The translations under genes and the position numbers were made by a program. A stretch of DNA of 64,000 bases, taken from Camillea tinctor (Eukaryota; Ascomycota; Sordariomycetes; Xylariales; Xylariaceae). The notes below the pieces were generated by a model. It worked only from the letters and a program-made list of their open reading frames with translations. It searched no databases and was not told where the DNA came from. This document shows positions 16,092 through 40,820 of the stretch, one piece after another; the first letter of the stretch is position 1, and every line of letters begins with the position of its first letter. Location of the stretch: positions 1 to 64,000 of the forward strand of contig MU394051.1 of assembly GCA_022578605.1 (NCBI GenBank), written 5' to 3'.

Positions 16092-17620
16092 ACGCGTGAT
16101 ACTAAGCCAATTTCCAAGGTGGTTTAACCTACTAGCTCGGTCGGGATGATCTTGAGGCGTGGCGTCCACTATTTCGTTTCCAATATTGATAGCGCGGGTT
16201 GTGTCGTCTATTGAACTAGTTCGCCTAAACCGCTCGGCAAGCCAGGTTCCAAGGTTGCTTAGCCTACCAGCTCGGCCAGGGTGGTCTTAAGGCGTGACGT
16301 TTATTATTTTGTTTGCAATTTCGACATCGCGGTCTAGGTAATTTCTCGAACCAGTTCGTTTGTACCGTTCCCCGAGCTGGTTGCTTAGGGTTTTCAAGTA
16401 CTCTGTTCCGTCTGGATGGTCTTCAGGCATAGCGGAGACTGCCAGTTCAGTTGTACTGATTGCGATCTCTAGGGCGTCTGTAATATCCTTTCGCTGATTT
16501 CGCTGATAGCAGTTCCCTAGCATCCTACTTAGTGTGTCCAGCTTCCTAGATATATTTTGATAGTCTTCAGCCGTGATTATCTTCAGTTCTTGCAAAATGG
16601 AATGACTCTAGATAGTCAAACACAAGATACGACCAAAGATACGTCCGGTGTTTAATCCCCAATAGTCTATTTCCAAGGTACCTTTTGATCTGGGGATCTA
16701 GCTTTCCTCCCGCCAGGCAGTTGACTCGCTGCCTAATAACCACGTTCACCTCCTGGCTAATATCTTCTGATTCGTCTTCGCCCGGAATCCTGATCTGGGG
16801 ATGATATATTTCCAGATCCTGAAAAGGAGACACAACATTGTCATACGGTCAACTCGTCAAAAGAATTCTGAGTTTCCCTCTGTTGTTGACTAAGAATCGC
16901 CGTTTCAATCTTTTCGTAAGGGTCTTGTGTTCGTCTTCGGCGCACTCATTAAGAGCATCTAAAACGCAAACTACTTGATTAGCCTCAAGATCTGATGTTG
17001 CTTTTTCGAAGACATCTAAAAGTGCTGAGGGGATATCGGTCAATTTACTCCCATTGCTCTCGAACTCGGACATGGAATGTCGGATGAGTAAAGATTTCTG
17101 CAAAAAGAGCTGGTGAAGAAGAGCACATAGTGCTTGTTTGCCGGTATTTTGGTCTTGGTCTTTGAAGAAGAAATAGCAGATGGTTGCCATTTTCGGTAAT
17201 TGAGTGTCAATGAGGAACTTCGCGAGAACGGACTTCCCGAATCCAGGATCCGCAGATACTAATAGAGGGCCGGAATCACCTTGCAACCAACTTTGAAAGT
17301 TGGGCTATTTCAGGAACCGTTTGCATGTGACGTCCACTCGCTCTACTACACGATCTTTGTAACCCCGGTAATCCGAATCTGTACGGCAAAACACTTGGAG
17401 ACACTTTCTCTCCTCCTTGGTCATTCTCGTCTGCCCCTGTGCGAAACTCAATATGCTGGCGTCCGGGAAGTCGGTCTTTAGAAGGTCTCTCAGAAGATGA
17501 ACTCGGGTCCCTGGCATTTTCCCTACTTCGGCTGCCGCAGATGCTGGAACTTTGCATGTCCAGGTATATTCCGGATGAGCCCCCAGCCCGTAGACAGTAA
17601 CGATTCTATGTGGTCATGTC
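16062..17620 (-). pseudogene. Decayed NLR: esterase-like fragment, NACHT NTPase, TPR repeats
   Basis: One minus-strand reading frame with several breaks. It starts with VTVYGLGAHPEYTWTC, the opening of the alpha/beta-hydrolase (SesB/DUF676-like) domain that heads many fungal NLRs. That domain breaks off after ILSFAQ and runs straight into the pre-NACHT segment (KCLQVFCRTDSDYRGYKDRV). The NACHT Walker A is VSADPGFGKSVLAKFLID, and the Walker B-like VVCVLDALNECAEDE and sensor-like LRILLTS follow. The frame then shifts near 16570-16595 into ~45-residue TPR units (DHPDGTEYLKTL..., DHPGRAGRLSNL..., DHPDRASRLNHL...). In-frame stops lie at 17305-17307 (TAG), 16849-16851 (TGA, where the family has Arg in TSRPYD) and 16287-16289 (TAA, where Gln is expected before DHP). 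Intact homologues act in incompatibility or immune-type signalling; this copy cannot. Outer limits are approximate. Confidence 0.85.
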
Positions 17621-19178: not shown

Positions 19179-19191
19179 CGGGGGGTATCGG
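19179..19191 (+). promoter_or_regulatory. Cluster element copy D, CGGGGGGTATCGG
   Basis: Matches the CGGGGAGTATCGG element at 12 of 13 positions, and its right flank (ATACGG) resembles that of copy B (ATTCGG). It lies 70 bases beyond the 3' end of the first regulator gene, so its target, if any, is unclear. Confidence 0.4.
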
Positions 19192-19260
19192 ATACGGAGA
19201 AAATCCAGAGTATCGTCGTAATCAGCCTTGAGAAACCTTCATACATAGGCGCACATCGGT

Positions 19261-21347
19261 TCACATCCCAGCCACAGACGGCATGGAATAAGTATCAGCT
19301 ACCAAATCCTCCAACACAGCGGCAGACCTCTCCAGATCGACAGCTTCGCCAGACCAGTGATGCACCGTCCTCGTAGCCACGTCGACCGCCTCGCGCCACC
19401 GCTCGGGCATCGAGAACTTGCCGCTTCGCGCAGCTGCGAGAAGCAGCAGGGTGCACGTGGCGGCCTTGCGCGCGACGTACCACGAGCCGTGGTGGCGATG
19501 GTGCACAACGGCGTAGAACACGAGCTCGACGCACAGCTCGAGGCAGGTGTCGGCTAGGGGCTGGACGCGAGCGCGGTTCGGGTCGTCCGGGGGCTGGTGG
19601 ATGACGTAGTAGAGGAACGGGCGGTGGATCCACTCGCGGCTGCTCTGGACGCGGTAGTTCACGAAATAGGCGAGCTCGTTGTTGGACACCTCGCGGTTGT
19701 GGAGGTCGATCTGCGGCGGGATGTGCGAGCACCAGAACTTTATCTGCTCGTTGAAGTCCTCGTACTGCTTGATCGTCGTGCCGATGTCGCTGATCCACCC
19801 TTGCTCGCCGTGGCGCCGCATCACCGAGTATGCGCGGTTCATCATCCGGCGGTACGAGATCTCGGCCAGGTAGTAGAACCAACTTCTCTCCTCTTCCGGC
19901 TCGATATCTACTCCTAGAGAGTCTAAGCTATGCTGGTGAGCTGATGGGGATGTAAGCTCTGATGGCGGAGTCGGGAATGCATCAGGATAATCAAACCGTG
20001 TGATCCCACTGGAAGGCAGAGGTATCTCGACTCTAAGTTCGCTGTGTAGGGCATGTATCAACATACTCAACCCTCGCTAATATTGATGCCAAAATAGGTT
20101 TACGATAGATGATGAAACTCACATCTCCGATTTCAGACATGACCAGTATAACCGCTGCTCGAGGCGCCTCGTCTCCGGCTCCTGGCTATTACCTTTAAAC
20201 AGCCGCTTCCACACAACATTTTGAAAGTTCACGGATGCTTGGTTAAAATAAAACCAGGCTCGTAGAGGCCTCAGCGAATACATCTCGAACACGGCGCAGA
20301 GAAAAAGACATTGAACTTGGATAATAGAAGGTTCAAGAAGGCCGAGGCGCTTCTTTGCCGCTAGATAATACGACGAAGCCGTCGAACGGTCTACGGTCGT
20401 CGTGACTGAGGATCTGTTGGAATCTGGTGTCCCGTCGATCACTGGGTCTGGCTGGAATGGTGAGGATAGACAGGCGAGGGCGCAAGATATAAGCTTCAAA
20501 GTTAGTTCAAAGCCAGCTACCTAGGTATTTTTTCATGTATTAAAGAGTCATACCACAAGACACGATGGAGCATCCCAACTAGGACCATTTTCCGCAGCCT
20601 CTCTTACATGAGCTTTATAAGTAGCAATATCCAATATCGGATTCTTCACGTGGACGTAAGCGAGGAACTTTTTCGATAGGGCAATAAAATCATCTTCCTG
20701 GACGCCTCTTCCCAAGCTACCAGGTCTCTCATCTTGCCTATCAGTCGCGGTGTTTGCGTCATCGTTCTCAGCTTCGAGAACGAACGATCGCACTTCTGGA
20801 ACCAATCCACGAAAGATAGGCCACCGTAATATACTCTCGCAGCTTACTGTAGCTGCAGTAAACTCAGGATCATCTAGGGATATCTCCCCAGCTCTAGTCC
20901 GCTCAAATTCTTCAGAGTGGGGTGCATATGAGGAACTTGGGGATGGTCCACAGGGACCTCCGACTGCCATTCTAGGATTCCCGGATTCAAGAAGAGATAC
21001 GACATGGTTGACACGATCCAAGATAGCTAGGCTTGCTGGGTCGAATCTACGTAACCCGTGTCAGTCAGCCTTGGGTGGAGGATAGTTACCTAGGTTAGGT
21101 ACGTGATATCAAGAGTGGAAACTAACGAAGAATAATCGCTCGGGCCTCCGTCTTGGTATATGCATTGGCCGTTGTTCCTTTGACAAAAACCACATGTTGG
21201 CCGCGCATTATCACATTTGGTCTTCCTCAAACGACACTGCTGACAGGCTGCTACCGCTCTCTTCCTTCGGTACATGCCTGAGGTTCGTTCTCGCCTTTTT
21301 CTTGGAGATGATGCATCATTGTCAAGTCGAGGGTCCGTGTCAACCAT
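19261..21347 (-). CDS. Zn2Cys6 transcription factor with fungal-specific regulatory domain
   Basis: Four exons: 21127-21347, 20554-21046, 20123-20493 and 19261-20041, about 621 residues. The ATG at 21347 is the first true start. The DNA-binding cluster is CQQCRLRKTKC followed by CGFC and CIY, a canonical CX2CX6CX6CX2CX6C, preceded by a basic patch (RKRRERTSGMYRRKR). The rest is the all-helical Fungal_trans middle-homology region (FDPASLAILDRVNHVVSLLE; PSWDAPSCLV joined to LISCALACLSS; SCLKSE; GWISDIGTTIKQYEDFNEQI). The first donor is ambiguous: GTTAGT at 21126 (used) or GTACCT at 21102, both phase 2. The second intron uses an AAG acceptor after a good CTAAC branch site and contains a perfect TACCTAGGTA. 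It neighbours the sugar-metabolism genes, and the shared 13-base element lies 122 bases upstream of its ATG, so it is the likely cluster regulator and may control itself. The 3' exon is notably GC-rich. Confidence 0.88.
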
Positions 21348-21983
21348 ACTTGTCAACTGGTTAACTGTTAATTGGATCTAGAATTATCTACCTAATTGTC
21401 CAATGGGGTTTCGACGTTATGCGATATAGTGTAGCATATGTTTTGTACATCCGTCCATACTTGTCGAGCGGGGAGTATCGGAGCTTTATAACTACCTGGT
21501 CCTGGCACATACACTAGGTAGTGGGGGGACTGATTAGTGAGGTTCGGAGGTAGGCCGCTTTGGTAGCGAGGCCAAGTAAGAGAGACCTGCTTGACTAACA
21601 TGGGGTCGACCGGTGCTTTAACTCATAACCTACATGGATACTTACTTAGTCGTTGGAATAAATGTTAGGTAAACACAAGTTCCATGGCGTGGACTATACT
21701 AATTTGAAAGACGCCCGGTGTTACGCAAGCTATATAGATGGGGGTTAAGATCTAACACAATCGATGAACATAGAACCTAACCTAGACCAATCCTGTTTCA
21801 ATACACTAACCTTAGGTTATATAAAATATAGAAGCAGGGGGGGTAGGATAGTCTACTCAACTAAATGCGGATATCTACCAACTCATTGAAAAGGGTTATG
21901 TTTATCTATGGTACCTACATTTTCATAATCATACAAGACGTTACGTGAGGAGACAAGTTCGGATCGACATACTAAACAATTCT
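21348..21983. other. Promoter of first Zn2Cys6 regulator, 3' flank of dehydrogenase gene
   Basis: A 636-base spacer with both flanking genes on the minus strand. It carries cluster element copy C at 21469-21481 and, at 21545-21560, a CGG-N7-CCG pair. No gene is seen. Confidence 0.5.
21469..21481 (+). promoter_or_regulatory. Cluster element copy C, CGGGGAGTATCGG
   Basis: Exact 13-base match to copy A in the transporter/oxidoreductase promoter. It contains CGG-N7-CGG, a direct-repeat arrangement of the triplet that Zn2Cys6 proteins bind. It lies 122 bases upstream of the first regulator ATG, suggesting autoregulation. Confidence 0.6.
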
Positions 21984-23113
21984 CTATGCCGCATCTTGTG
22001 GGAATTTAGCACCGCCTTGGCGGCGGATCTCATCCATAATCTCCAAGACTCTTACCGTCTCGCTCCACGGCATGATGTTGTCTTGGGTTTTTCCCGCAGT
22101 AATATCCAACGCGACTGCATCCGCTTCCCAGAAGAAACCCATACCCGGTTTCTCAAACTCGTACTTCTTGGTATCATTATCGCCTTTGTGTATGGTGAAG
22201 GCCTGGGGGCACGATGTAAATCCTTCTATCTCGATAGATCCCTCGCTGCCCTCTATCCTGCAGAACGGCGAACGTCCTTTGACCAATGTCGAACATGTCA
22301 CGACACCTTGCCTTCCGGGGTAGAGCAAGAGCGCCGAAGATGTGGTATCAATCTCGTCGATCAGGGTCTGCATGGCGGCAATTTTCGGTTTCTCAGCCTG
22401 TTCACCCAAGCCCGTATCCAAGCATAGCAATGCCCATGTCAAGCTGTATATGCCGATATCTAGCAAGCTCCCTGCTCCCAGGGCTGGGTTCTTCAACCTG
22501 GACTCGGGCCCTAGCGATGCGATCTTCTGATCCATTGCAAAATCGCAGAAGACACGGCGGACGTCCCCGATGACCTTTTCAGAATGCAGTAAAGTCAGAA
22601 GCTTTCGTGTGAGGGGGAAGAAGCGCGTCCACATTGCTTCCATCACGAAAACGCCCTTTTTTGTGTTTCAAACGTCAGCAAGGTAATGTGCACCATCTAG
22701 CAATTAAGCAATTATTTGAACGTTACCTTTTCCTTAGCTGCTTCGAAGACTTCTCTTGCCTCTGCACTGTTTATGGTGAATGCCTTTTCGCACAGCACAT
22801 GCTTCCCATGTTTGATAGCATCCAGACAGTTTTGCTTGTGGAAGGCATGGGGTGTCCCGATATATACCACGTCAACATTTGGGTCATTGTAGACCTCTTC
22901 GTAACTCCCGTAAATGACCGGAATTGGGGATGCTGCTGAAAGGTGTTTTTGGACAAACTCTGTTCCCTTCTGTTGAGAAGATGATCCAACTGCTTTGATG
23001 ATATGGTTTGCCCGTTTATCAGTCCGTTCTACCATCAGGTCTTTAACAAACCAAGATGAAATCAAGCCTGTAGCTATGATGCCCCAGCGCACCGTCGGGA
23101 GCTCGGCTGCCAT
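21984..23113 (-). CDS. Gfo/Idh/MocA dehydrogenase, D-xylose 1-dehydrogenase / dihydrodiol dehydrogenase type
   Basis: Two exons, 22727-23113 and 21984-22655, about 352 residues. The intron has a GTAACG donor, a CTGAC branch site and an AAG acceptor, and restores the family sequence AAKEKGVFVMEAMWTRFFPL. The N-terminal Rossmann fold reads WGIIATGLISSWFVKDL (G-x-[AG]-T-G type), followed by VDVVYIGTPHAFHKQNCLDA and the catalytic-lysine motif HVLCEKAFTIN, in which the usual EKP is EKA, as in the dimeric dihydrodiol/NADP-xylose dehydrogenase branch. GAGSLLDIGIYSLTWALLCL holds the Asp/Tyr-type catalytic region. Members oxidise aldopyranoses or trans-dihydrodiols with NADP+ in the cytosol. The ATG at 23113 was used because the frame upstream has only a GTG. 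Gene order and a cluster element 250 bases upstream link it to the sugar transporters. The exact substrate cannot be read from the sequence. Confidence 0.9.
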
Positions 23114-23820
23114 GATGAGAAACTTGTACACTGACTTGGGATGAAAGAAAGATTATATTGTGGTCTTTTGCCAACTTAAGCGAGTTTAAGTCTCTATGAT
23201 TGATGTTGGATAGATATAATGACTTGAAGAATATTTGAACATACGAATTGAACAACTGCCGGGAGCATGAACTAATAAAGGAATCTTGGTACACTATTGA
23301 AAGCCCCCAAGTTGGAGATCTTAATCGTGGGGTTCGCTTTATAATCCGGAGTGGTCCCGAATCCGATATTCCCCGTGCAAACCCACGTAGCTAACAACAA
23401 GGATGGATACGAATATTCAATCATTAGCTCGATATCCTGCTACAAGATCGTCTCTGAAACCTTTCACTGAGGTCTCTGGCTTAGATGAGGTCATGAGGAT
23501 ACTATAGCGAGCACGAGATTTCGGTCCTTTTTAAAACTCCGCCTGGGCTCATCCGATATTCAGCTAGCAGAGTTCCCATATATACATTGACCTAACACAT
23601 ATATATTAGCAATGGGAATTCTGCAAGAGGTAAACAAGAGCGCAAACTATTCTAGTTTTGATATATAAATGATTTAGCTTCGAATTTATATTAGAGTATA
23701 TGTAAAATGTCGTGTTACAGACTTGTTTCTCCATATCAGATGGATGTTTAGTTATCATATCTACGAGAAGAAGATAATGCCAGTAATGCTTATTGACACA
23801 GCTTGCTTGTTCTTGGCACG
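23114..23820. other. Promoter of the sugar dehydrogenase gene
   Basis: About 700 bases between two minus-strand genes. Contains cluster element copy B at 23363-23375, and downstream AT-rich DNA that probably holds the transporter 3' UTR. No gene is seen. Confidence 0.5.
23363..23375 (-). promoter_or_regulatory. Cluster element copy B, CGGGGAATATCGG on minus strand
   Basis: Matches CGGGGAGTATCGG at 12 of 13 positions, then continues ATTCGGG, close to TTCGGGG after copy A. It is 250 bases upstream of the dehydrogenase ATG and in its transcriptional orientation. Confidence 0.55.
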
Positions 23821-25689
23821 TCAGGCGTGCTCGAGCTGTTCTGCCTTCCCATTATCCTTCATCTCGCCCATCTCACTACGAGACTGAACGTTGTGTAGCT
23901 TTCCATCTCGAGCCTCCTTCTTACCTTCAAACACCTCAGCAATTTCCTCCAAAGTATACCCCTTAGTCTCTGGAAATAGAAACCAAACGATGACCAGAAG
24001 ACCCGCTAGAATGCAGCAAAAGACTATGTAATATTTCCACGAAATTGCGTTCATTGCAATTGGATTGACTTGGTTTCCGACAATGAGGCCGAGGAACGTA
24101 GTAATCAAGGTGACTGACAGGCCGCGCCCACGAAGCGTATATGGGAAGATCTCGACGGTATAGGCTTGTAGTAGCGGTGTCCAGGCAATGTCATAGAAGA
24201 AATAGTAGATAAAGATAAAAGCCACCACGGTGCGCCCAGTTGCTTCGTCATTGGTCCTGATGAACGCCGATGTGAGACCTGTCCAACAAACATAGCTAAC
24301 CATCATTCCCGCGGTTGATAATAAGAAGAGCGGTCGTCGGCCGAAACGATCAACCATCATAGCGCCACAGAACGTTGCTACCATCCAATTGAAGATCTGG
24401 AGGAGCCCATTTATGAGTGTCTGATCTTCGGCATCCGTGATGCCAATAGTGTTCAAGACAAGGGTCAGATAGTAGCTGACGACCCCGATGCCATTCCACT
24501 GGGCGAACCAGCCAACGACGATGGCAATGAGTGTTCGCTTGCGGTTTGCCGGTGTGCGAATAAGATCCATCCACGAAGTTGACGAGAGAGCCTCGCTCTC
24601 TTCAGCAAGGACTTGTTCGACCTCCCTTATCTCGTAATCAACAAGCGGCGAGTTGATGTCGCCGCCGGCATGGTAGTCGGCAAATACCTTTCGAGCTTCG
24701 TCTACCCGACCACAAGACACAAGATATCTTTGCCGAAACATTAGTTTATTCCCAAAGAGAAAAGTTACAAGAGTGGATATTACTTGCCTCGGCGATTCTG
24801 GAACGAGATATAGCCCCAAAAGCTGAACGAAGGGTACTGCACCTTGAAGTAGTGATGGTATCCTCCATGACCACGTAGATTGAAGTTTGAAGGTGCCGAA
24901 AGTGCACCAAGCAGCAAAAATTGAACCGAAATACTGCAGTGATAAGTATCAATATCCAGTGTATGCGCTGATGTTGAGAAATATTATAGGTAATCTCACA
25001 TAAAAAGTATTATATAGCGCCGTGACCTTTCCGCGCTGGGTCGGATAGGCGAGCTCTGTGATGATCACAGGCCCCGGCTGGCCGAGGAATGACCCAAAGA
25101 AACCGATCAGGGCCCTCGCGGTGACAAACGTTGCCAGGTCTTGGGCCAGCGCCTGCATGATGGCGAAAGCAATACATGTAACCAACCCAATAAGCATTGG
25201 GAGCCTGCGTCCGTATCGATCAGAGACATATGTGACCACGAACAAGGACACGACGCCCCCGAGTGGGTAAACTGCGTTGATCAGGCCCAGCAAAGCGCCG
25301 CTGGGGTTCCCGAAGAACTCCTTCCACTGAGGAAGTGTTTGGAGACCGTTCATCATCGAGCCTAGTTAGAATTGTCATTATAATGTTGGCAAAATAAGAA
25401 GGGGACTCCCAGCTAAGAAGATGCCGTGTTCGAAGCTCACCATCGTAGCCAAGGGAAGCCGAAGACAGAAGAGGTACTAGCAGGGCAAGGTTGAGTTTGA
25501 CGATATGCGAGGTTCGATACCACGGCTTAGGGTTAGGTGGAAGGACCTAGGTTACATGTTCCCGTGCCTAGTTAGAAAGAGTCTGAAGACATACTACTCA
25601 ATGTTTACTTATAATGAACGAGGGAAACATACAGCAGCGAGGCCGGCGCCGACAGCCAGCTCCGCCTCTTTCTGACCAAAGATGCCCAT
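23821..25689 (-). CDS. MFS sugar transporter, lactose/hexose permease-like
   Basis: Five exons: 25633-25689, 25441-25546, 25000-25361, 24788-24933 and 23821-24727, about 525 residues. It starts MGIFGQKEAELAVGAGLAA and joins PNPKPWYRTSHIVKLNLALL. Family motifs are GYDGSMMNGLQTLPQW, the loop 2-3 signature SDRYGRRLP, LVPESPR, DRFGRRPLFLLSTAG and FPETKGYTLEEIAEVFEG. Twelve membrane helices are expected, with both termini cytosolic, and sugar:proton symport at the plasma membrane. Intron 4 (24728-24787) appears to be a GC-AG intron of 60 bases with no stop in frame; reading through would add 20 residues between ESPR and YLVS, a junction that is contiguous in relatives. It faces a plus-strand oxidoreductase across a 1.15-kb shared promoter. 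The family is certain; the substrate is not. Confidence 0.92.
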
Positions 25690-26348
25690 GACCTTGACCT
25701 TGACAGGTGACCGTGAGACCAAACAAGAAAAGAAAAAGTCTCTGGGAAATCTGTGAGCAAAAATAGATTTTTCTACTAAGAGCTCGAGGTCGTACTGAGA
25801 GTTGATGTCGTCAATGTCGTCAATGGGAACGACAATCTGGGAGATGGGATCTTCATATTTACATATGTACCTCTAAGCTAACTATCTAAGTTAATAACCT
25901 AACTACCACTCTTTGCACTTGCGCGTTTCCCCAGCTTCTTGAACGATCGACCCGTTGCGCGTCAAACCCCATGGGGGGATTGGGACCTAGGGGCTTGCCA
26001 GGGGTTCTCCGCAGGTTATTAACCACTCGGTGGGGGCGCTCGGTAGAGGAAAAGGGTGGGTTGTTTAGACATTGGAACATCCAAGTTGCTTGGACTTCTC
26101 AATTTGGCCTCTATAATGCCCCCATCGGTATATGTGTAACCTGTACCTTGCTAAAGAGCCTGCATGTGTCCTTGTTCAACTGGATGTGCAGGGGGTTTGT
26201 ATAGCCAGGAAGCCCATGTAGTGGTAGAGTAAGAGATTAGTCATTTGGGTAACATACGTACTTATTATATACCAGACTTCCTATACTACTATACGTATAC
26301 TCTGTGTACTTATTATGTAAGTTCTTGTAAGTCGGGTCGAAGTCCGAC

Positions 26349-26376
26349 ACTCCCCGGGTTATGGATACCGGGGAGT
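26349..26376. promoter_or_regulatory. Inverted repeat ACTCCCCGG-N10-CCGGGGAGT
   Basis: The arms 26349-26357 and 26368-26376 are perfectly complementary. The inner triplets form CGG-N10-CCG, a spacing known for Zn2Cys6 dimers such as Put3. The right arm overlaps cluster element copy A. Confidence 0.55.
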
Positions 26377-26381
26377 ATCGG
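26369..26381 (+). promoter_or_regulatory. Cluster element copy A, CGGGGAGTATCGG
   Basis: Exact match to copy C. It lies 458 bases upstream of the second oxidoreductase ATG and 680 bases upstream of the transporter ATG, and is followed by TTCGGGG as a third triplet. Confidence 0.6.
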
Positions 26382-26507
26382 TTCGGGGCAATAACTAGCC
26401 TAACCTAGTTGAATCATGTGAATCAATTGATTGACGAGTTTCAATACGATAATCAACTTGGCTCTAAACTTAGATGTCTTTGTTACGCGCGTATCTACTT
26501 ACATGTA

Positions 26508-26527
26508 ATCAATTGACGTCAATTGAT
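26508..26527. promoter_or_regulatory. 20-base palindrome with TGACGTCA (CRE) core
   Basis: ATCAATTGACGTCAATTGAT is a perfect palindrome centred on TGACGTCA, the classic CREB/ATF-type bZIP site. It is 311 bases upstream of the second oxidoreductase ATG. bZIP input is inferred from the core only. Confidence 0.5.
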
Positions 26528-26838
26528 GTATTTTGTAATTATAGTAAAGATGAAATCCAGCTGTTGACCTTCTCCTCTACTATCTTGTAAGTCAATATAA
26601 TGCACAGACCAAGTTTAAGAGGTACAGAATACATACTGTGACGTAACAACAGTAGCCATAAAAACCCCATCCCACTTTCAATCACTTATCACTGTATTTT
26701 CTAGACCCCTCCTTATTATTAGCATTGTCCTTTAGGGTGTGTGTGTTATACCTCCTTTTCCCAGTTGACCTCACTGCTTTTCAAAAACTTCTAGTTGTCT
26801 CAGCTTTTATTAAAAGAGATTTTCATATTATTTTCAAA

Positions 26839-27990
26839 ATGGGAGATAAAGTGATACTCCGAGTTGGTATTATTGGCTGCGGAGAGATAGCTCAGGTCGC
26901 TCACATACCCAACATCAACTTTCTCTCGGATCTCTTCCAGACAACGTACCTTTGCGATATCTCCAAACAGGCTCTGGCACACTGCTTGAGGAAGGTTGAA
27001 GGCCCAACCCCCAAGACCACCACGTCTCCCGAGGAATTATGTTCTTCCCCGGAGGTCGACGTTGTCCTGATTGCTAACGCCGATGCGTACCACGTGGAGC
27101 ACGGCATCCTAGCTCTCAAGAATGACAAGTACACCCTGATAGAGAAGCCGGCAGCTCTGTGCTTCCGAGACATCGACAGGCTCATAGAAGCGGAGAAGGC
27201 TTCCAAGGGCAAGGTCTTCGTGGGTACCATGCGCAGATTCGCAACTGCGTTCCTCGACGCCGTCCAGGAGGTGGGCGGGATGAACAAGATACAATACGCA
27301 CGCGTGAGGGACATCATCGGGCCGAACTCTGTGTTTGTTGACCAGTCGGGGACGTTTCCCAAGAAATTCGACGACTTCACCGAGGCGGACAGCAAAGATC
27401 GCCTGGCACGCGAGTATGACATCTGTGACCAAGCCTTGAGAAAGGAATTCGAGGTGGCAAATACCCCTGAATCGAGACTGATGCTGCGGATTCTCGGAGG
27501 GTAGGTGTTTCATCTTCTACTAAAAAGAATACACTGACCAGTTACCAGCCTCGGGACCCATGATCTGTCTGCTATGCGGGAGATAATAGGAATGCCCCAG
27601 AGAGCAGCAGGCGCCTGTCTGACGTTCCCCGGAATCTTCGCTGTGCTCTTCGAATTCGATGGATTCCCGGTGACCTACGAGTCAGGAATAAATGACATCC
27701 CGGATTTCGATGCCCACATCGAGGTATATTCAGAGAAAAAGATTGTTCGGGTTGAATACGACACACCTTATGTAAAGGGGCTTCCAATCACCATGATAGT
27801 GAGAGAGAAGATCGAGTCAGGTGGTTTCCAGGAGAGAAAAGTCAGAAAGACATACGAGGATTCGTATACCTTGGAGTTCAAAGAACTATATGAGTGCGTC
27901 GTGAATGGTAAAGAGCCCAAGACAAGTGCGGTGGATGCTAGGAAAGACATTGAGTTGTTCCAGATGATCTTGAAAGCTGGCGCAAAATGA
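26839..27990 (+). CDS. Gfo/Idh/MocA-family NAD(P) oxidoreductase
   Basis: Two exons, 26839-27500 and 27549-27990, about 367 residues. The 48-base intron has a GTAGGT donor, a CTGAC branch site and a CAG acceptor, and restores LRILGGLGTHDLSAMREIIG. The Rossmann start is VGIIGCGEIAQVAHIPN (GxGxxA type). VDVVLIANADAYHVEHGI and the lysine motif YTLIEKPAAL follow, then GTMRRFATAFLDAV and the C-terminal alpha/beta substrate domain. The central GTHDLSAMRE segment supplies the usual Asp/His-region residues near the nicotinamide. It is only distantly like the dehydrogenase at 21984-23113, so the two probably catalyse different steps. Relatives oxidise inositols, glycosides or anhydro-sugars. The start ATG at 26839 was chosen because the frame upstream has no better ATG and MGDK directly precedes the fold. 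It shares its promoter with a sugar transporter. Substrate unknown. Confidence 0.88.
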
Positions 27991-28309
27991 TATCCTTTCA
28001 TACTATAGTATATATATGCGACCTTTGCATAGATATAAAGATGGTATAGAACTCATCTAAAACTTTATTGATGGCTGTTAATAGCTACGAACGCTACAAT
28101 TCGCCCTATGATATTAACCACTGATTAAGAGGAAGAGCGCTACAATAGTACCTAGACACATCTAGCTCTAAGTTTCAGGCGAAGAGGACTGGGCATCAAT
28201 AGAATAATTTCAATGTGTATTTATTCACAGCATCATCGACCAGATGCTCAAACTCTAGTCAAGGGATAGGCTACTGCAGAATTTCCGGGATTCAGGGCAT
28301 AAAATTGCT

Positions 28310-30091
28310 TCACTCTTCATCTTTCCTCATAACATATTGGTCATAGGGAGACTCGAGCTTGACTTCTGGGGGTGTTCGAGGGTCGACATACCACGGAAGA
28401 GGGCTACTAGTCTGGAAAAGCCATTTGAGCGCAACCTCGCGCAGGCGAGCACGCACATCCTGATAGTCGGGATTCTGTGCCAAATTATGCTTCTCATACG
28501 GATCATCACCCGCCCGGCTATACAGCTCATCCGCTTCGTAAATCCTGTACACATAGGTCCATTCTTTGTCGCGGATGCTGATCGTCTTGCCCACCAGCGC
28601 TGTGTCATTATGCTGGAGGGCTATTTTGATGTCGTAGGGGAATGGACCCTGTTCCAACAACGGCTCCTCGCCTAGTAGGAACCCCCCCTCAGTGTAGGCA
28701 TATTTCTTGTGTGGGATCTGTTCGCCGCGTCCGGCTGCGTGTATCGCGTCTACTAGCGAAAGGCCATTGTGACCATACGTCTCGTTCAATGTCGCCAGCT
28801 GTAACATGGTAGGCACGAGATCAACCATCTCGGCCATCTCTTCGTAAACTGCGCCCTGTGGTAGCCCCGCACCTCCTATAACCATAGGCTCGTGGACGAG
28901 ATTCTCAGACACGGCCGAGGGCCATTTTTCGATGAGTCCGAAGTCGCCCAGGAACTCGCCGTGATCGGTCATAAACATCGTTACGGTATCGTTCCATAGT
29001 CCCAACTCTTTTGTCTTGTTGACCACACGGCCGAACAGGGAGTCAAGCCTCGAGATCATGCCATAGTATACGGCTTTGACTTCTTGCCAGATCTCTGGCG
29101 TGGCACGATCTAAACCATAGTGCAGCCGGATTTGTTCCTCGAAACGAGGTGCATACCCGGTCTGTAATAGAAACTCAGTCTCGGATGTGTCTTGTATAGC
29201 ATGAGCAGGGTTTCGCACATACCTTAGTCTCAGCGCTCGGCGGCAAAGGCATTTCGCTCCGGTTGTACATCGAGAACCATGGCTCCTCGACAGTAAACGG
29301 GCAATGCGGGAAGATAAGAGGCAGGAACAAGACCCACGGCTTGTCCTTGGGCGGTGCTTCGAGCCATTCAAGCGCCCCCCGAACTGCAGTTTCATCGTAG
29401 TCGATAGCCTCCGTCGAATTTCTTAGGCCGAGGTAGAAAAGCCGGTTCCAAATGTTGTTCTTGTCGACGTTATATGGCTCGCGAACAAATTCCGGCAAGG
29501 TGTCTGTCAAGAATCCATACTCGTCCACGCTCATCTCAGTCGAGTTAGGCGCATAAAAGTCCCCGCGCGGTGCGAGGTAGGCGACGTGATACCCACCCTC
29601 CTTCATCGATCGGAAGATGTTGGGCTCCCATGGCTTTAGCAGGTTGTTCAAGCTGCGGTGACCACTAACATGGGGATATTGGCCCGTGAACATGCTGCAG
29701 CGGGACTGCGAGCATACCGAGGCCTGGGTAAAGAGATTGGTGAAGCGCGTGCCTTCGGCAGCAAAGGCGTCAATATTTGGTGTTTTGATAATCTAGTTCG
29801 ATTGATGTAAGTCTCTCTCTCTCTCTCATTATTCGACCTAGACTAGGCTGTAGGTTTTACCTCATTGCCAAACACGCCTACTGCATCATAACGTAGTTGA
29901 TCAGGCATAAATATAATGAAGTTTGGTTTCTCGATTCCCAGGCCGTTTGGCTTAGCAGGTATAAAATACGGATTGTCACTATAGTGAGGCTGTGTTTCCA
30001 CTGTCGTCGTCGCTGTTGTCGCCTGACCTAGGACGACACTGGTCAAGCTAATCAGAAGCCAACGGGCTGCAATCCCTCCGTCCAACTTCAT
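28310..30091 (-). CDS. Secreted type I sulfatase (arylsulfatase-like)
   Basis: Three exons: 29861-30091, 29223-29792 and 28310-29161, about 550 residues, all junctions in phase 0. The first ~23 residues form a signal peptide (RWLLISLTSVVLGQA), so the enzyme should be secreted or periplasmic. The metal site opens with FIIFMPDQLRYDAVG near residue 64. The formylglycine signature is CSQSR at 104-108 (VCSQSRCSMFTGQYP), where Cys is converted to formylglycine by a sulfatase-modifying enzyme. The second metal site is MTDHGEFLGDFGLIEKW. Type I sulfatases hydrolyse sulfate esters using Ca2+. The Gln in the signature (CSQSR rather than CxPSR), and a C-terminal region unlike choline sulfatase, argue against that enzyme. 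It lies between two sugar-permease genes and converges on an oxidoreductase, suggesting a sulfated carbohydrate. Intron 1 has a GTAAAA donor and a GA/CT repeat. Substrate not determinable. Confidence 0.9.
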
Positions 30092-31120
30092 TGTGACATG
30101 AAAATAACAATGACGAGAGAAGTCAAAGTACTAGATGATAAATTGCAGTAGAATCAATTCAAGATCACATCAATTTCTGGCAGGGTTAATCTTAGATCGA
30201 AATACGTAGACATGCACATGAAGAGGAGACTATACACTACCTAGAATTATATAGCCCCATAATTTATAATGTATGTCAAGTGGTGATAACATAGCACGCA
30301 ATTTTGACTTGGTATAATAGTCTAGTCGGCAAAGAGTTATGTTACCGTGAACTCCCCTCAAGAAACATGCAACTTGAATTATTTCAGAATTACCTAACCT
30401 AACCTATATATGTAGCTTTCTCCAATGCCGCCCCCTCCCCCCTCTCCACGACCCCCCTCTTCCTCCCCCTGGAATCCCGATAGCCGTAGTGTAATTTTTG
30501 GCTTCGTTCCAATGCTTGAAAGTCTCCACAAGTTTACCTAGCTTCACTACTCTGCACGATTCTGCCTCTGTTCCACGTAGATCAGTTGCTCATGACAGTT
30601 CTTGAGAAATAGAGTTGAACGCTCTGTTCTGTGGTGTTATGGTACGGAGGATCCCCGTAGCCCCTATTTTCACATTTTCTTGGAGTATCGATGAACCTAA
30701 CCACCTTTCCGCTGTGATCATTGTCCTCAAATATTCGATGTCTTAATCTAATGAAAAGTATACTATCTTCCCCGTAATCCTCATTTCCCGACTCGTAGAT
30801 GTAAATGTTAGTTACGGTCGACTCAAGTGGAAATACGGATGTGTTAACAAATGAGTAATTAGTCAATAAGAGCAGGTAAATGGCGGCAATGCCCCTAGAC
30901 AGTTTGAAGTCTATAAGGGAAACTACCTCGTTCTTCTTAATTACCCAACTTAGAGGATTCATAAATTCAACTTTATATGCTTTATCTTCAATAGTACATT
31001 GCGGGTAAATCGATCCCAGTGTAATGGTCTCTTTGAATAGAAAACATTATAGATCTCTATGTACTTATAGAGTGTCCCCAACCGATCAAACTATTTGAAT
31101 ATATTTCAATTCCGTCTCCC
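30092..31120. other. Sulfatase upstream region
   Basis: About 1 kb between two minus-strand genes. A degenerate cluster-element match (CTTGGAGTATCGA, 10 of 13) lies at 30679-30691, about 590 bases upstream of the sulfatase ATG. A 126-codon minus-strand frame (30582-30962) starts with ATG but has no recognisable domain and I do not call it a gene. Confidence 0.4.
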
Positions 31121-33106
31121 TCACTGGTATTTAGAGGCCTCAGACTTGAATTTCCGCGCAGATACCCGCGCATGGAATAGACGATCGAGGGTTTCTGGCA
31201 TCATGCCTTTTGTTTCTGGGAGTCTGAAATACGTCCAGATTACCAAGATCAAGGTGAGTCCAGCGGCTGGAAACGCAGCCTTTCCCTTCATGTTCCCCGC
31301 CGTAGGGTTCAGCATATACGGAGCTGTAATCTGCGAATACGTAAGCAATGATCGGATTTTGTTAGTGTAGTCAATATATAATAACACATCGACTCACATT
31401 GTTCAATATCGACAGCACGTAGTACCCGTTCCGGCCGAGGGAAATTGTCTTGGATCGAAGTTGAGAGGCCCCTACTTCGGCCGCTATGGCGTACGGTATA
31501 GGTCCAATCGTGGATCCTGCATTATTTTCTTAATAAGTGTAGTCCCATTGATCAATTTTATGGAATTATAGTAAGATCATACCGTAGAAAAAGAACCACA
31601 AAAGGAGAACTGCAGATTGTGCCCATCTCACGTTTGGTGATGGAGGCGCCAAATCAAGAAATCCGACGCAAAACATTGGCACAAGCATCGCTATCAGCCC
31701 TCCGAGATAGATATCTCGACGACCAAATCTGCTTAGAATGAACCAAGAAGTTACTGTGCCGATGAATGCAATGCTGTAGGTACCTGAGTGAATATATGTT
31801 AACGTTTTGACTTTAGGTAAGTATTGAAATCAAGAGTTCAAAAAGGGGAGAGGGGGAGGGAGAAGCCAATAAGGGGTACCAACCAAGAGCTAATTTGAAA
31901 GCATTTCCAGACGACAACCCTGCGAGAGTGAAGAAATACGTCATGAAGTTCTGGATTGCCCAACCCGGAAGGATTTGGCTGCCCTAGATAAACGATGACT
32001 CGTTAGAACCGTTTCCTCATCAAGAGGCCTAAGCTACTACTAGCTACGAAGGATAAAACATGCTTTAACTTACCCAGCTAATCACTGCAATCTCAGTTCG
32101 TCGCAGGTTTGTGCCTTTGAAGCAATCCAGATAGGTACCGCCGATATCCATATCTCGCTCAGTCTGGATGGTGTGCTCCATCATAGCCACCGTATTCTGG
32201 GGGTCGACGTGCTCAGGCGGGGCCGAAACCAGCCTACGCAGAGTCTTCAATGCGTCTTCTCTCTGCCCCTTCTTTACGAACCACCACGGCGACTCGGGGG
32301 CGAACCAGCAGGCGATTATGAGAAACGGCGGCCACAGCCACTGGATCGCGAAGGGAATGCGGTAGGACCACTCGGTAGGGTCGTCGAGCCTCGAAGTTAG
32401 GACACCGGCTGCGATCAGGTGGCCGATGACCCAGCATAGGTTGACGTACGTGGTAAGGTATCCGCGGAGTGCCATTGGGCACACCTCGGCGGCGTATCCA
32501 GGAGTTGCCGCGGCGAAGATACCGCACGGAACCGCCCTTATTAGACCGATCTCATCAGTTTTCCCCTTCTTATTTCTCTCAGAGGTAATACGTGAAGGCA
32601 AACAACTCGATATATACTTACATGAGAAACATACCGACGAGCAAGATTTCCACCGAGGGGGCGAAGAACGGGACGAAGATGAAGCCGGTGAGCGCTACGT
32701 GCGACCAGAGCATCGTGAGCCGGTACCCGAACCTGTCGGTCAGGGACCCGCTCGCGAAAACACCAGGAATCATGCCGACTATCGAGCCCAGGGAGAGAGC
32801 GACCTGCCACTGCGAGGGGATCGAGTACGTGCCGTTGGGGAGCAGCTCGCCGTACTTCTTCACGAACTGCGGGAAGGCGAAGAAGGAAGTCATCAGGATC
32901 AGGTCGTAGCTCTCCATGATGGTCGCCATAGACATGATGACGGACCAGATGACGGCCTTCCGGTAGAACTTGAGCGCCTGTCTCACCGAGAGCTTCGTCT
33001 CGGCCTGGGTCCCCAGCGCGGCGTCTACATCGTGCTGTAGATTCTCTTTGTCCTGCGTCGTGACGTGCTCTACGGAGGTCTCCTCCAGGGCCTCTTTGGA
33101 AGTCAT
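31121..33106 (-). CDS. MFS sugar transporter, alpha-glucoside permease-like
   Basis: Six exons: 32622-33106, 32074-32536, 31884-31983, 31583-31783, 31398-31516 and 31121-31330, about 525 residues; every phase agrees. Motifs include SYDLILMTSFFAFPQF, SGSLTDRFGYRLTML (loop 2-3), PCGIFAAATPGYAAEVCPMA (the PESPR region follows as APESPWWFV), GWAIQNFMTYFFTLAGLSSG, SRFGRRDIYLGG, IGPIPYAIAAEVGASQLRSK and RLPETKGMMPETLDRLFHAR. This pattern matches the maltose/alpha-glucoside permease branch of the sugar porter family, whose members import di- or oligosaccharides with protons at the plasma membrane. The second exon begins after an AAG acceptor. It is only distantly related to the transporter at 23821-25689. 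The first two exons are GC-rich. It lies directly upstream of the sulfatase on the same strand and probably imports the desulfated product; this is inference. Confidence 0.9.
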
Positions 33107-34358
33107 GTTGGGTCACACTACAAAAGGGGTAAAATGTAACGGGGTAACAAGGGAGTTGTAAGTGGGAATGGTATTAATGCCAGTCTCTAGTGGTTACTCC
33201 CTTTCTACACATTTTCTAAATTTATTTCCACAACGGAATATCATCATACTATATACCTACTCATATATCTATTCAAGAGTAGCATACATAGCAAGTATAC
33301 ATAGCGTTCATTACGTGTCTCAGTCAAGTTCAGCTTTCCCTAGTCAACCTTTTTCCCCAGACCCAACTCCCGGGGTTCATCTAGACAGGGAATAGTTAGT
33401 TCACCCCACACCCAGATGTTCTCATCTGTGGATAGAATGGCGTGCGGGGAAGGACCCATAGCATTCCCAAAACCTGCAAGGAACGCTATGGTGTTCAAGC
33501 AGGACTCTCCATTTCCAGCTCAAGTAGCGAGCTGGCTGGGGTCGAATGGGGACTACGTTGTAAGTAGCAGGTAGGACAAAATATGAAAAGTATACGGCTT
33601 CGGCTTTGCGCTTATATGGGCATGATATAGTACTGAACCACCAACCTCTATCAGAGTTAATAGCTGCTCATACACTTATACAGTCTTGCGTTCCAGTCTC
33701 CTGGAATATAATTCTTGATCCAGTGCACCTGCTTATATGAGCACTTCCGTGATGGTAATTTCACAAAGCTCTATAAACAGCTACTCAGATCCGAGGGTCG
33801 CCAGCCTGCTAAACTTACCCAAGTTTCGGCGCATTGCCGTGAACAAGATATATCCCACCTGAAGACGTGATACAAAAAGTACCAAAGATAGAGCAAGGCT
33901 CAGCCCGATCTAGACCCCGACATGCCAATTTAGAGAAAAATACCGTAGTGAGAAGCAAAAAAAAACAATGAGATGAGCTCATGGCTACCTAGGGAGCCGG
34001 GGTCCTTTCGGGCCTCTTCCTTAGTTACATGCCGTCCTTGCTAACAAGGGCTAAGAGCAACACGTCTGTGATGGTTCCTCGTGAGTTGACGCAGGTTCCC
34101 CTCCCCACATATGCACACTACGGCAGTCGGTTTCTCCACTCGGTAGTCGGTATATTGCATGTACTTCAACGTCGATGAGGTTTCGGAGATGAGGCCTGTT
34201 GGAGCCCAGCAGGTGGGAAAGGAGCCGTGGCTCATCGTTGCTTAACAAAGGCCAGAACATCGAGCCACTGCATAAGTAGTCTCATATCATTCAATCGTAT
34301 TTGGAGGTGGTTCGCAAAAAAAATATTTGGCTTTCGTCTAAAACTACGTTTCTTGGAC
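33107..34358. other. Intergenic region with coding-like fragments
   Basis: About 1.25 kb. The + strand at 33419-33569 encodes a compact frame (PIAFPKPARNAMVFKQDSPF then VASWLGSNGDYV) ending at a GTAAGT. A second + strand frame at about 33712-33870 reads YEHFRDGNFTKLYKQLLRSE. Neither joins cleanly to the other and no family is recognised, so they are noted rather than called as a gene. Confidence 0.35.
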
Positions 34359-36584
34359 TCATTGTAGACTATTCCACAGGTCAAACCCGTACTCGAAATT
34401 TTGACCTTCTAGGGCGTCTCTAGGTGGCTCCAGTATGCCAAATACCGTGTTTTGTGTCCAATCGCCTGCTGTATAGATCGTGTCCTTGCCACTTATACCC
34501 GGCTGTGAGGGATCCGTAGAAGGTATAGGACTCACAAGAGCCTCTGGTACCCCTTCCGGCGATTGTACTGAGGTTTGTGTTGAAATACTTTGCGGCGTTG
34601 ATCCTTGCTGTGAACCCTGGGGAAAGAAATTAGAATATGCTCTTCGAGGAGGTACATTTGCAGTTCCGGGACTGTCATCCACAAAATGTGCCTGGCGTGC
34701 TATGCTGTGGACTCCCAGCCGCTGAGCATCTCTGGCGACGCGGGATAGCCGTGCCGCTTGAAATGGTCCGGGTTCGTCCGAATCAGACGACTGCGCTGTT
34801 TCGCTGATGTCTTCTCCCTCAGAATGAATCCTGATAAGCTTCTCTAGATCGCTAATCATGTAACCGACAATTGCTGAGCCAGCAAAGAAACGTCTAAGAA
34901 AAGATAGACACATCGTAGCCTGGCTCGCAGCAGCTTCTCTATTTGATAAAGGCGCCTGTGATCTTGGACTTGCGGCAAAAAGGGCTATTCTCGCTCCTTG
35001 GTAGGCACAGATGGCGACATCGTGATCGACAATTTCTGTATCTGGACTTCGGCTATTGAAATCCAATATGATTTGGATGATAGAGGTTGCATGTTCAAGA
35101 CATGTGCTGGCAGCAGTTGCTACGAAATTTGCGTCAACTGCGTCAAGCACCACATCAGGAGCAGCTTCTTTGTATCCCCTCATGAATAGTCTATATAGAT
35201 CGCAATTGCATTGGTGCCACGAAAGATGGGCCATCAAATAACGCGGGCGCCATCTTGCCTGATAAGCCTTCCCCGTATCGCCAAATGCATACAGTCGTGA
35301 GCCTGGTGTTTCGGCTCGAATTTCTAACAAGCATTTTCGGAAATCTTCAACTAAACGAACAAGTTGGGGCAGAGGGGCTTCAGCGTGGCATACTTGTCTC
35401 TTCAACCGCATGACGTCTCGCCGCATGGTCGACAATCGTAAACAAAACGAAAGTAATCCGGCGTCTCCGTTTTGTGAGACTGGCGAGTTAATAATTTGTG
35501 ACTGATCTGTACCCGCTGAATAGCTATTAAATCGATCTTCGGAAGACGGAAGAACCAAATAAATGTTTTCGTAGGAATTGAGCTCGAATTCCGGAAGCCC
35601 CACAGCGAAGAACGAGTCCATGACCATGAGTGTCCACATCAAGCGACGGCGAATCTCTTGCGCGACATTATCGAGGTCCGTCCTTTCATAATTCAGTCGT
35701 AGTGCACTGGCTGACCTAGCAGCGATAGAAGACAGCATGAAAGCTCGCTGGAAGCGACCTGTCCAAACGCGATATTGGATAACGAGTACGAGGGTTTGCA
35801 ACCTGGCAATAGTAGGATATTCGATAGACTGCCATATTTCATTTTCTACCTGTTGTATCCACCTGTCCGTCTGGTACGGGTAATAATTGTAGATGTTGCG
35901 CCGCATAGAAGTAACTGAACATATCCCATACGCCAATAATGGATCTAAAGAGCCATTGGCGCATTGCTCGGTGACTGATGCCTCATGAAGGAAACTGTAC
36001 GAGATGAGTGGATATATCTGCTCGAAGAAAAGCTGCACTAATGACAGTAGTTCCATAGCCGGAGGCACGCCGGTGGTTGAGGATGATTCGTCGCCTATTC
36101 TACTAGATGGTGAAGGGCTGGTCTTCTCATCAGAAGTCATCAATGGCCCTGCATGAGATGGTTCAGCCTGTGACAGGATCCCGCCATTGTCAGCTAGAGG
36201 GTTCTCAGAAGGTGAGGTCCTTGTATCGATGACCTGGGAAAGCCTCTTGGAACCTAAATATATGCATATCTTTCCCCGGCGACAGCAGCATCCACATTGT
36301 GGCTCCTCTCCCGAGCACCTAGCTTTTTGGAAGCGACATTCTAAACATGCACGTTGACCTCGACGGCGTGTAGGTTCGAAGATCGTCCGCTCCTGTGGTG
36401 GAGACGTAGCAGACACTGTAAATGAACAGACGAACTGCAAACGAACGCAGTTATTGCAGCCGTCTAGAGTTCCGTCGCAACGAACCTAATATTATATTCA
36501 GTCAGTTTTGATCTCTGTAAACTGCATGATCTTTAGTACTTTGCGAGCTCTGCATTGATAACACGTCTTTTTGATTGAATCCAT
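34359..36584 (-). CDS. Transcription factor with two tandem Zn2Cys6 clusters
   Basis: Two exons, 36540-36584 and 34359-36485, about 723 residues. The 54-base intron (GTACTA donor, CTGAC branch site, TAG acceptor) splits the first zinc cluster. Spliced, MDSIKKTCYQCRARK joins VRCDGTLDGCNNCVRLQFVC, a canonical CX2CX6CX6CX2CX6C. Without this exon the second exon has no ATG at its head, which supports the model. A second complete cluster follows within about 30 residues, CLECRFQKARCSGEEPQC then GCCCRRGKIC, also CX2CX6CX6CX2CX6C. After a Ser-rich linker comes a Fungal_trans-like helical region (MELLSLVQLFFEQIYPLISY; YRVWTGRFQRAFMLSSIAAR; RRRLMWTLMVMDSFFAVGLP), and the C-terminus is Ser/Gln/Pro-rich, perhaps for activation. 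Most fungal regulators carry one cluster. It sits at the edge of the accessory cluster and may regulate it, though the 13-base element was not found upstream. Confidence 0.85.
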
Positions 36585-40128: not shown

Positions 40129-40820
40129 CGCGAAGGCTTAGAACGGGCGGCTGGTCGGTCGTTTATTCGTAAAGTTCTAGCGGCGCGAGGGAACTCGAAT
40201 TTGGACTTGAACTTGGACTTAAACTTGGGTGGCTCGAAACGGATATGCCGACGTTGCAGTAAATGAATGACGGGTTTGTAGTAGTTAAAGGTGTGCGCAT
40301 TTTCAAGTGTCAAGCATGGCGAAATGTTAAGCTAATATGGTTGCTCGTGGGTGGTGCGTGATAAGAAGTAGGTAGGTTTAAGTGGTAACTAAGTGGGTGA
40401 TGGTCGATGTGATACGAAGAGAAGAAGAGGATGTTTCTTTGTTTGCGATTAAGTTGGTAGGTACGGAGCATTGAGCAGAGGTCGAAAGGCTGAGCTCCAA
40501 CCTGCTAGGCTAGCAGGCTAGCAAGCTAGTGTAAGTTCGGTGGTCGGAGTTAAAAATAGACAAGCTGCATCGATAAGATCTGACCCAATTTATTTACATA
40601 CTTGCTCGATAAGTTTTTAGCGCGGACGACAAGACGCGACGAGGCTGAAAACAAATGCTTGCGCCACAAATCTTATACAAGTACCATAACCTTAACCCTC
40701 AGGTTACTCGGTCCCCAACTTGGAATTTTCACATTGGAGCTTCATGTGCCGTGATTCCTGACCCCGGCAGCACAGCTTGGGCACTACCCACATCGATCCC
40801 GGCCGATTCTTGCTTAAACA
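40129..40820. promoter_or_regulatory. Bidirectional promoter between THO1 fusion and Aquarius genes
   Basis: About 690 bases between two divergent start codons. A direct repeat of GCTAGCAGGCTAGCAAGCTAG type lies at 40507-40530. No gene is seen. The head-to-head pairing of an mRNA-export and a splicing gene suggests shared expression. Confidence 0.5.

What the first reader, a model, noticed from the sequence alone, without database searches (positions are those of the whole stretch)
19179..36584. Candidate sulfated-sugar catabolic gene cluster
Seven adjacent genes are two Zn2Cys6 regulators, two Gfo/Idh/MocA dehydrogenases of different branches, two different sugar permeases and a secreted sulfatase with an intact CSQSR site. 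Known family roles fit extracellular desulfation, import and oxidation of a sugar. Bacteria have such sets for sulfated glycans; I know of no described fungal equivalent of this make-up. The substrate is inference.
Basis: partly seen in the sequence, partly recalled or inferred. Interest (0 to 1): 0.82.

Follow-up and report, generated by a model that had tools for sequence, protein, structure and literature searches.

The report
Fungal sulfatase among sugar-uptake genes
Seven intact neighbouring genes of a wood-dwelling fungus do include a probably secreted sulfatase, two sugar importers, two sugar-type dehydrogenases and two regulators, but the sulfatase and the neighbours that could be checked were not found together in most related fungi, so a dedicated sulfated-sugar pathway is unproven; the more notable point is that the sulfatase has an unusual active-site motif in a genome where the known activating enzyme was not detected.

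Summary
Observation confirmed: seven adjacent genes (19261-36584) of Camillea tinctor, open from start to stop once spliced, encode two Zn2Cys6 regulators, two Gfo/Idh/MocA dehydrogenases, two sugar transporters and a probably secreted sulfatase (CSQSR). The cluster reading is only partly supported. In assemblies with a sulfatase of the same clade, 0 of 4 testable pairs (sulfatase with dehydrogenase D or transporter F) share a contig length; four neighbours could not be tested. The set holds no glycosidase or sugar kinase, and no promoter site clearly links it. Two dehydrogenases beside a sulfatase would be rare under uniform placement (0.00016), a post hoc test. The sulfatase is more informative. 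Its clade looks like a secreted offshoot of a fungal family mostly lacking signal peptides. The motif is C-x-Q-S-R in 119 of the 120 best hits (one gapped), outside the published [PA] pattern. The nearest bacterial relative found (Actinomadura violacea) also has CSQSR and lies beside a gene for the formylglycine-generating enzyme (FGE), which was not detected in Camillea. Several of the next bacterial relatives lie beside glycosidase genes, favouring a sugar sulfate. Best reading: a lineage-specific neighbourhood around an extracellular sulfatase, not a proven pathway.

The parts
19261..21347 (-). Gene A: Zn2Cys6 regulator, 621 aa, 4 exons (21127-21347, 20554-21046, 20123-20493, 19261-20041)
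   Evidence: spliced model; Pfam Zn_clus and Fungal_trans
21984..23113 (-). Gene B: Gfo/Idh/MocA dehydrogenase, 352 aa, 2 exons; best solved relative is the dimeric dihydrodiol dehydrogenase; best NCBIfam hit is a D-xylose 1-dehydrogenase model, far below its cut-off
   Evidence: 169.5 bits; 77.7 bits against 350
23821..25689 (-). Gene C: sugar-porter MFS, 525 aa, 5 exons, one GC-AG intron
   Evidence: TIGR00879 above cut-off
25690..26838 (.). Divergent promoter region between C and D, 1149 bp
26839..27990 (+). Gene D: second Gfo/Idh/MocA dehydrogenase, 367 aa, 2 exons; some homologues are named inositol 2-dehydrogenase by their sources
28310..30091 (-). Gene E: sulfatase (PF00884), 550 aa, 3 exons (29861-30091, 29223-29792, 28310-29161), hydrophobic N-terminus, motif CSQSR at residues 104-108
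31121..33106 (-). Gene F: sugar-porter MFS, 525 aa, 6 exons; some homologues are named maltose or general alpha-glucoside permease by their sources
34359..36584 (-). Gene G: fungal transcription factor with two Zn2Cys6 clusters, 723 aa, 2 exons
   Evidence: 2 Zn_clus stretches plus Fungal_trans

Best explanation
The seven genes are a Camillea-lineage neighbourhood of carbohydrate-acquisition genes that evolve mostly apart, not a conserved dedicated pathway. Its sulfatase is a secreted member of a fungal family that probably came from actinobacteria. Outside the cell it hydrolyses a sulfate monoester, most likely on a small sugar or glycoside, with metal held by D64, Q65, D333 and H334 and with C104 of CSQSR as nucleophile; the freed sugar (and sulfate) can then be taken up by general importers such as C and F. 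Shown by sequence: open genes, conserved catalytic columns, family tree, N-terminal hydrophobic segment, and different contig lengths for E and its neighbours D or F in the few relatives testable. Inferred: lateral origin, substrate class, secretion and the catalytic role of each residue (roles recalled from the superfamily). Unknown: whether C104 is converted to formylglycine, since no FGE was detected.
For: Open genes and Pfam roles. Catalytic columns D64, Q65, K130, H146, D333, H334, K346 in 55 of 55 aligned homologues, and C104, Q106, R108, H240 in 54 of 55 (1 gap each). Tree of 120 best hits and 62 bacterial rows: the 120 form one clade (SH-aLRT 99), sister to Actinomadura violacea (99); Camillea lies in an 18-row clade (100). 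Hydrophobic N-terminus (score 1.8 or more) in 8 of 18 of that clade against 1 of 102 others; of the other ten, five models start at or just before the MPDQLR core, three score 1.35-1.76 and two (Decorospora, Zopfia) start short without one. Neighbours not kept: 0 of 4 pairs within the clade. Bacterial sister group beside GH3, GH1, GH20 and SBP_bac_5 (L025), GH3, SBP_bac_5, Gfo/Idh/MocA and ThuA (L027), GH3, SBP_bac_5 and permeases (L080).
Against: The uniform-placement test says two Gfo genes beside a sulfatase is rarer than chance (0.00016), and among the detected Gfo and sulfatase hits of this genome it is the only place where they adjoin; the next nearest pair is over 100 kb apart. Regulators and transporters beside enzymes are typical of real fungal catabolic clusters (recalled). 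The co-location test rests on contig lengths of listed representatives, on four clade pairs, and on two of six neighbours. Farther bacterial relatives show no sugar context: in 93 neighbour ORFs (of 175 called) from 18 loci the commonest families are short-chain dehydrogenases, and neither Gfo/Idh/MocA nor glycosidases are among the 25 families shown of 162.
Confidence: 0.5

Rival explanations
1. A true, lineage-specific sulfated-sugar catabolic cluster: E desulfates a sugar or glycoside outside the cell, C and F import the product, B and D oxidise it, A and/or G induce the set.
For: Gene content; two Gfo genes beside a sulfatase is rare under uniform placement; some of the nearest bacterial sulfatases lie with GH3, Gfo/Idh/MocA, ThuA and importers.
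Against: Shared contig length in 0 of 4 testable clade pairs; the best D homologues are in Fusarium, Colletotrichum and Hypoxylaceae, while besides Camillea only 3 assemblies with an E-clade sulfatase appear among the 120 listed D hits; no glycosidase, sugar kinase or lactonase in the set; no shared promoter site that survives multiple testing.
Confidence: 0.25
2. Sulfur scavenging: E releases sulfate from soil or wood sulfate esters when sulfur is short; the sugar genes beside it are unrelated.
For: Fungal arylsulfatases are described in a review of alternative sulfur sources in fungi (PMC5857272, passages).
Against: No perfect CYS3/MetR-type site (ATGRYRYCAT) anywhere in the window and none with one mismatch in the 1029-bp region upstream of E; no TCACGTG there (the motifs are recalled). 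Absence of a site is weak evidence.
Confidence: 0.17
3. E is not a working sulfatase, since Q replaces P/A in the activation motif and no activating enzyme was found, and it has another or weaker hydrolase activity.
For: Published pattern allows only P or A at this position; no FGE hit in the genome.
Against: Q is held in 119 of the 120 best hits, occurs in 13 of 77 bacterial loci including one beside FGE, and the other catalytic columns are kept; unmodified bacterial choline sulfatase still turns over (PMC6189696, abstract and passages).
Confidence: 0.08

Closest known systems
Fungal 'unmodified' arylsulfatase of Fusarium proliferatum LE1 (Korban et al. 2017; seen only as cited in PMC5857272, passages)
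   Same: Fungal arylsulfatase reported to lack formylglycine; the Fusarium rows among the 120 best hits carry CxQSR.
   Different: I did not see its sequence, so membership in the CxQSR family is not established. Recalled: it was described as cytosolic when expressed; E's clade has signal-peptide-like starts.
Actinomadura violacea sulfatase in L078
   Same: 57-58% identity, CSQSR, sister to the 120 best hits.
   Different: Lies directly upstream of an FGE gene and a second sulfatase.
exo-2S-iota-carrageenan S1 sulfatase (6pt4) and the sulfatase-family proteins 4upi and 4upl
   Same: Best solved relatives by sequence: 6pt4 136 bits with one sequence, 4upi 191.5 and 4upl 176 bits with the family profile.
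   Different: Distant; the motif in 6pt4 reads CSPSR, not CSQSR.
Bacterial choline sulfatase (TIGR03417)
   Same: Same superfamily, full-domain match.
   Different: 139.6 bits against a cut-off of 433.45.
[quoted passage not shown]
   Same: A fungal sulfatase predicted to be extracellular.
   Different: Assigned there to S1_6 (N-acetylglucosamine-6-sulfatase); the passages seen report no neighbouring gene set. Sequence not compared.
Bacterial polysaccharide utilisation loci for sulfated glycans (recalled)
   Same: Sulfatase near sugar importers and oxidoreductases.
   Different: No glycoside hydrolase or lyase among the seven genes.

Membership tests
Type I sulfatase (PF00884; SulfAtlas S1) | Sulfatase domain above curated cut-off | tested here: met
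   143.4 bits against 25, residues 56-390
Type I sulfatase (PF00884; SulfAtlas S1) | Cys or Ser nucleophile and Arg four residues on | tested here: met
   C104 and R108, kept in 54 of 55 aligned homologues, 1 gap
Type I sulfatase (PF00884; SulfAtlas S1) | Published catalytic pattern [CS]-x-[PA]-x-R | tested here: not met
   Q at +2. The paper gives P in 87%, mainly replaced by A, others under 1% each, so the feature is usual but not universal (PMC5066984 section 7). I place E in PF00884 by homology, not as a proven formylglycine sulfatase.
Type I sulfatase (PF00884; SulfAtlas S1) | Formylglycine at the nucleophile | not testable with these tools
   needs mass spectrometry; no PF03781 hit in the genome, A. 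violacea FGE best E 0.139
Choline sulfatase (TIGR03417) | Score above the curated cut-off | tested here: not met
   139.6 against 433.45 bits
Fungal catabolic gene cluster | Co-location conserved in relatives | tested here: not met
   E-D 1 of 14, E-F 1 of 6, D-F 0 of 9 assemblies share a contig length; 0 of 4 within E's clade. Only E, D and F tested; contig length is an indirect measure.
Fungal catabolic gene cluster | Shared regulatory site | tested here: inconclusive
   of 48 CGG/CCG patterns two hit 4 of 6 intergenic regions: CGG-N7-CCG (about 1.05 sites expected) and CGG-N7-CGG (2.19 expected)
Fungal catabolic gene cluster | Co-expression on one substrate | not testable with these tools
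   no expression data
Bacterial-type sulfated-glycan utilisation set | Glycoside hydrolase or polysaccharide lyase in the set | tested here: not met
   none in the seven proteins
Secreted protein | N-terminal signal peptide | tested here: inconclusive
   hydrophobicity proxy only, 2.58 for E; no dedicated predictor was used

The most novel reading that the evidence does not exclude
Fungi hold a family of C-x-Q-S-R sulfatases of actinobacterial origin that works without the known formylglycine-generating enzyme, either with plain cysteine or through an unknown eukaryotic activator, and one branch of it has become an extracellular sugar-sulfate esterase that in Camillea is embedded in an induced sugar-uptake and oxidation cluster.
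Probability: 0.2. Interest if true: 0.72.

Novelty: new member of a known kind. Interest (0 to 1): 0.36.

Why it matters
If the cluster were real it would be a fungal counterpart of bacterial sulfated-glycan sets; that is not shown. What is directly testable is an open point in print: fungi have cysteine-type sulfatases but no recognised FGE (PMC8869759, passages), and fungal arylsulfatases appear to lack formylglycine (PMC5857272, passages). This family gives a clean comparison: a bacterial CSQSR enzyme encoded beside FGE, against many fungal CxQSR enzymes (and, in this genome, no FGE detected), with a branch that looks secreted, where ER modification could occur, and a larger branch without signal-like starts, where it probably could not.

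Tried and rejected
Sulfur-control sites upstream of E: none found. Shared Zn2Cys6 binding site: nothing beyond multiple testing. Choline sulfatase: below the model's cut-off. Another copy of the arrangement in the same genome: apart from the window, none of the Gfo/Idh/MocA hits lies within 100 kb of a sulfatase hit. Transfer of the whole bacterial set: B and D have a match in 3 and 1 of 80 bacterial loci, at 24-30% identity. Anaerobic sulfatase activator (TIGR03942): one hit at 27 bits against a cut-off of 349, not counted as one. Thozetella as support for E-F linkage: its sulfatase falls outside E's clade. Contig end as a telomere: no doubled TTAGGG in the window. Sugar_tr density in the genome: only 9 of 286 candidates were scored, so none was estimated. 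Print: on fungal sulfatase clusters search 22 gave 0 papers, 43 gave 3 and 73 gave 0; on the CxQxR motif search 79 gave 0; one library only, so absence is weak.

Limits: the co-location test uses contig lengths of listed representatives, typed from the tables. One search left out Ilyonectria destructans (E-F, different lengths), added; four species in two lists with unsure or different strains (C. fioriniae, F. fujikuroi, P. angulare, F. decemcellulare for E-F) were kept out of the counts and also differ; further species whose strains plainly differ were not counted. The 120 sulfatase rows are the best listed of 1,920 hits, 41 of them without an organism name. Bacterial loci are the best 80 of 180, gathered with two peptide patterns. 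Bacterial gene calls in high-GC loci are rough; the motif count (63 of 80 loci) was replaced. The tblastn query meant as FGE was a wrong-frame reading and is not used; the FGE beside the A. violacea sulfatase rests and the position match. The tree was the quick method, rooted at the midpoint. The FGE search misses the split, divergent FGE-like domain of the ergothioneine gene on C8 (18 bits), so a strongly divergent FGE could also be missed.

Full report
What the window is. The sulfatase, gene D and gene F give 100% matches to Camillea tinctor proteins on a contig of 1,826,994 bases, the length of contig C1 of the window's assembly. The stretch lies between a short NACHT-type frame near 17 kb and housekeeping genes: THO subunit 1 with guanylate kinase, aquarius, eIF4G and DNA polymerase alpha.

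Spliced models for all seven genes are open from start to stop and carry the stated domains. D is the only one on the + strand. G has two zinc clusters. C and F are sugar porters of different branches (24% identity); B and D share only a short similarity.

Is it more than chance? The genome search gave 14 Gfo/Idh/MocA hits and 22 sulfatase-domain exon hits, which I counted as 13 and 12 genes. Placed uniformly, two Gfo within 5 kb occur in 1.8% of trials, a sulfatase with at least one Gfo within 10 kb in 6.8%, and with two or more in 0.016%. The test was framed after seeing the locus, and real accessory genes clump, so it is suggestive only.

Co-location in relatives. No fungal genome but the window's own could be searched. 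I used the contig length printed beside each homologue as a fingerprint. Of assemblies in both lists, E and D share a contig length in 1 of 14, E and F in 1 of 6, D and F in 0 of 9 (one search had left out one E-F assembly). The E-D case is a 7.3-Mb sequence, where sharing means little. The E-F case is Thozetella, whose sulfatase is outside E's clade. Within E's clade the testable pairs are F. decemcellulare, Zopfia and Phaeosphaeria (E-D) and FL0641 (E-F): 0 of 4. FL0641 has the best F match outside Camillea (72%) and a 70% E match, on contigs of 204,832 and 569,782 bases.

The sulfatase. The catalytic columns are complete (the role of each residue is recalled from the superfamily). Among the 120 best hits (listed of 1,920; 41 without an organism name) the motif is CSQSR in 100, CAQSR in 13 and CTQSR in 6; one row has a gap there (the first count missed one row because of its pattern). 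None of the 120 has proline at this place. In the 77 of 80 bacterial loci that align there, the residue is P in 54, Q in 13 and A in 10. The SulfAtlas paper gives P in 87%, alanine as the main replacement and all others under 1% each, and its updated pattern allows only P or A (PMC5066984 section 7). Ten other sulfatase genes of the same genome show CxP[ST]R; a degraded relative on C7 shows CAQSR.

Origin and secretion. The quick, midpoint-rooted tree of 182 rows puts the 120 best hits in one clade (99) with Actinomadura violacea as sister (99), nested among bacteria. E's 18-row clade has support 100 and a long stem. A hydrophobic N-terminus at my threshold is seen in 8 of 18 there and 1 of 102 elsewhere. 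Of the other ten, three (Apiospora saccharicola, FL0016, Pestalotiopsis) have extended, moderately hydrophobic starts below that threshold, five models start at or just before the core, and two (Decorospora, Zopfia) start short without such a segment. So E looks like the secreted branch of a family mostly without signal peptides; this rests on a simple proxy. Lateral origin is an inference: bacteria were gathered with two peptide patterns only.

Activation. In A. violacea the FGE match begins about 150 bases after the sulfatase (8040-9515; FGE 9666-10478 in L078). A PF03781 match was found in 13 of 14 bacterial genomes searched, over 200 bits in 11. The three weak or empty ones (L061, L035, L053) are all Q-type, so of the eight Q-type genomes searched five have a strong match; several of these are draft metagenome assemblies. 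In Camillea PF03781 gives no hit and the A. violacea FGE a best E-value of 0.139. A divergent FGE-like domain of the ergothioneine gene exists on C8 but scores only 18 bits, so the search has limits. One review states that fungi lack FGE homologues (PMC8869759, passages), another that fungal arylsulfatases appear to lack formylglycine (PMC5857272, passages). Unmodified bacterial choline sulfatase still turns over (PMC6189696, abstract and passages).

Substrate. The bacteria next to the fungal-Actinomadura group are L025, L026, L027, L034, L041 and L080. L025 has GH3, GH1, GH20 and SBP_bac_5; L027 has GH3, SBP_bac_5, Gfo/Idh/MocA and ThuA; L080 has GH3, SBP_bac_5 and permeases; L026 has a permease and a second sulfatase; L041 has another permease type and a second sulfatase. 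I picked the ORFs scanned in those two calls by eye. L034 was scanned only in the summary run (3 ORFs). With B and D as queries, Gfo-like genes appear in 3 of 80 loci. Farther relatives show mixed company (93 of 175 called ORFs). This favours a sugar or glycoside sulfate for some of the nearest relatives, and only weakly for E.

Regulation. No CYS3/MetR-type site lies upstream of E, and no Zn2Cys6-type site pattern stands out after 48 patterns.

Verdict. The gene content is real; the pathway is a hypothesis with one mostly negative, indirect test. The sulfatase family with a glutamine in the activation motif, in a genome where FGE was not detected, is the part worth following.

Noticed in passing
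window 37421-40137 (-): THO complex subunit 1 (efThoc1) and a guanylate kinase domain lie in one continuous frame (37776-38732), which looks like a fused or read-through gene.
   Followed up: partly
window 16849-17304 (-): NPHP3_N / NACHT-type ATPase frame of 151 aa with no other frame of 130 aa or more close by; a relic or one exon of a broken-up gene.
   Followed up: partly
window 34359-36584 (-): Regulator G carries two Zn2Cys6 clusters in tandem; paired zinc-cluster hits under 200 bases apart also occur on C74 and C87 of this genome.
   Followed up: partly
G000 C7:254453-255641 (L019): Degraded second CxQSR-type sulfatase with CAQSR and several in-frame stops; the closest other match to E found in the genome.
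   Followed up: partly
window 24728-24787 (-): Intron of gene C with a GC-AG boundary.
   Followed up: no
L078 8040-12109: Actinomadura violacea: CSQSR sulfatase, FGE and a second sulfatase in a row.
   Followed up: yes
window 13233-14435 (-): Open frame of 400 aa with no Pfam match.
   Followed up: no
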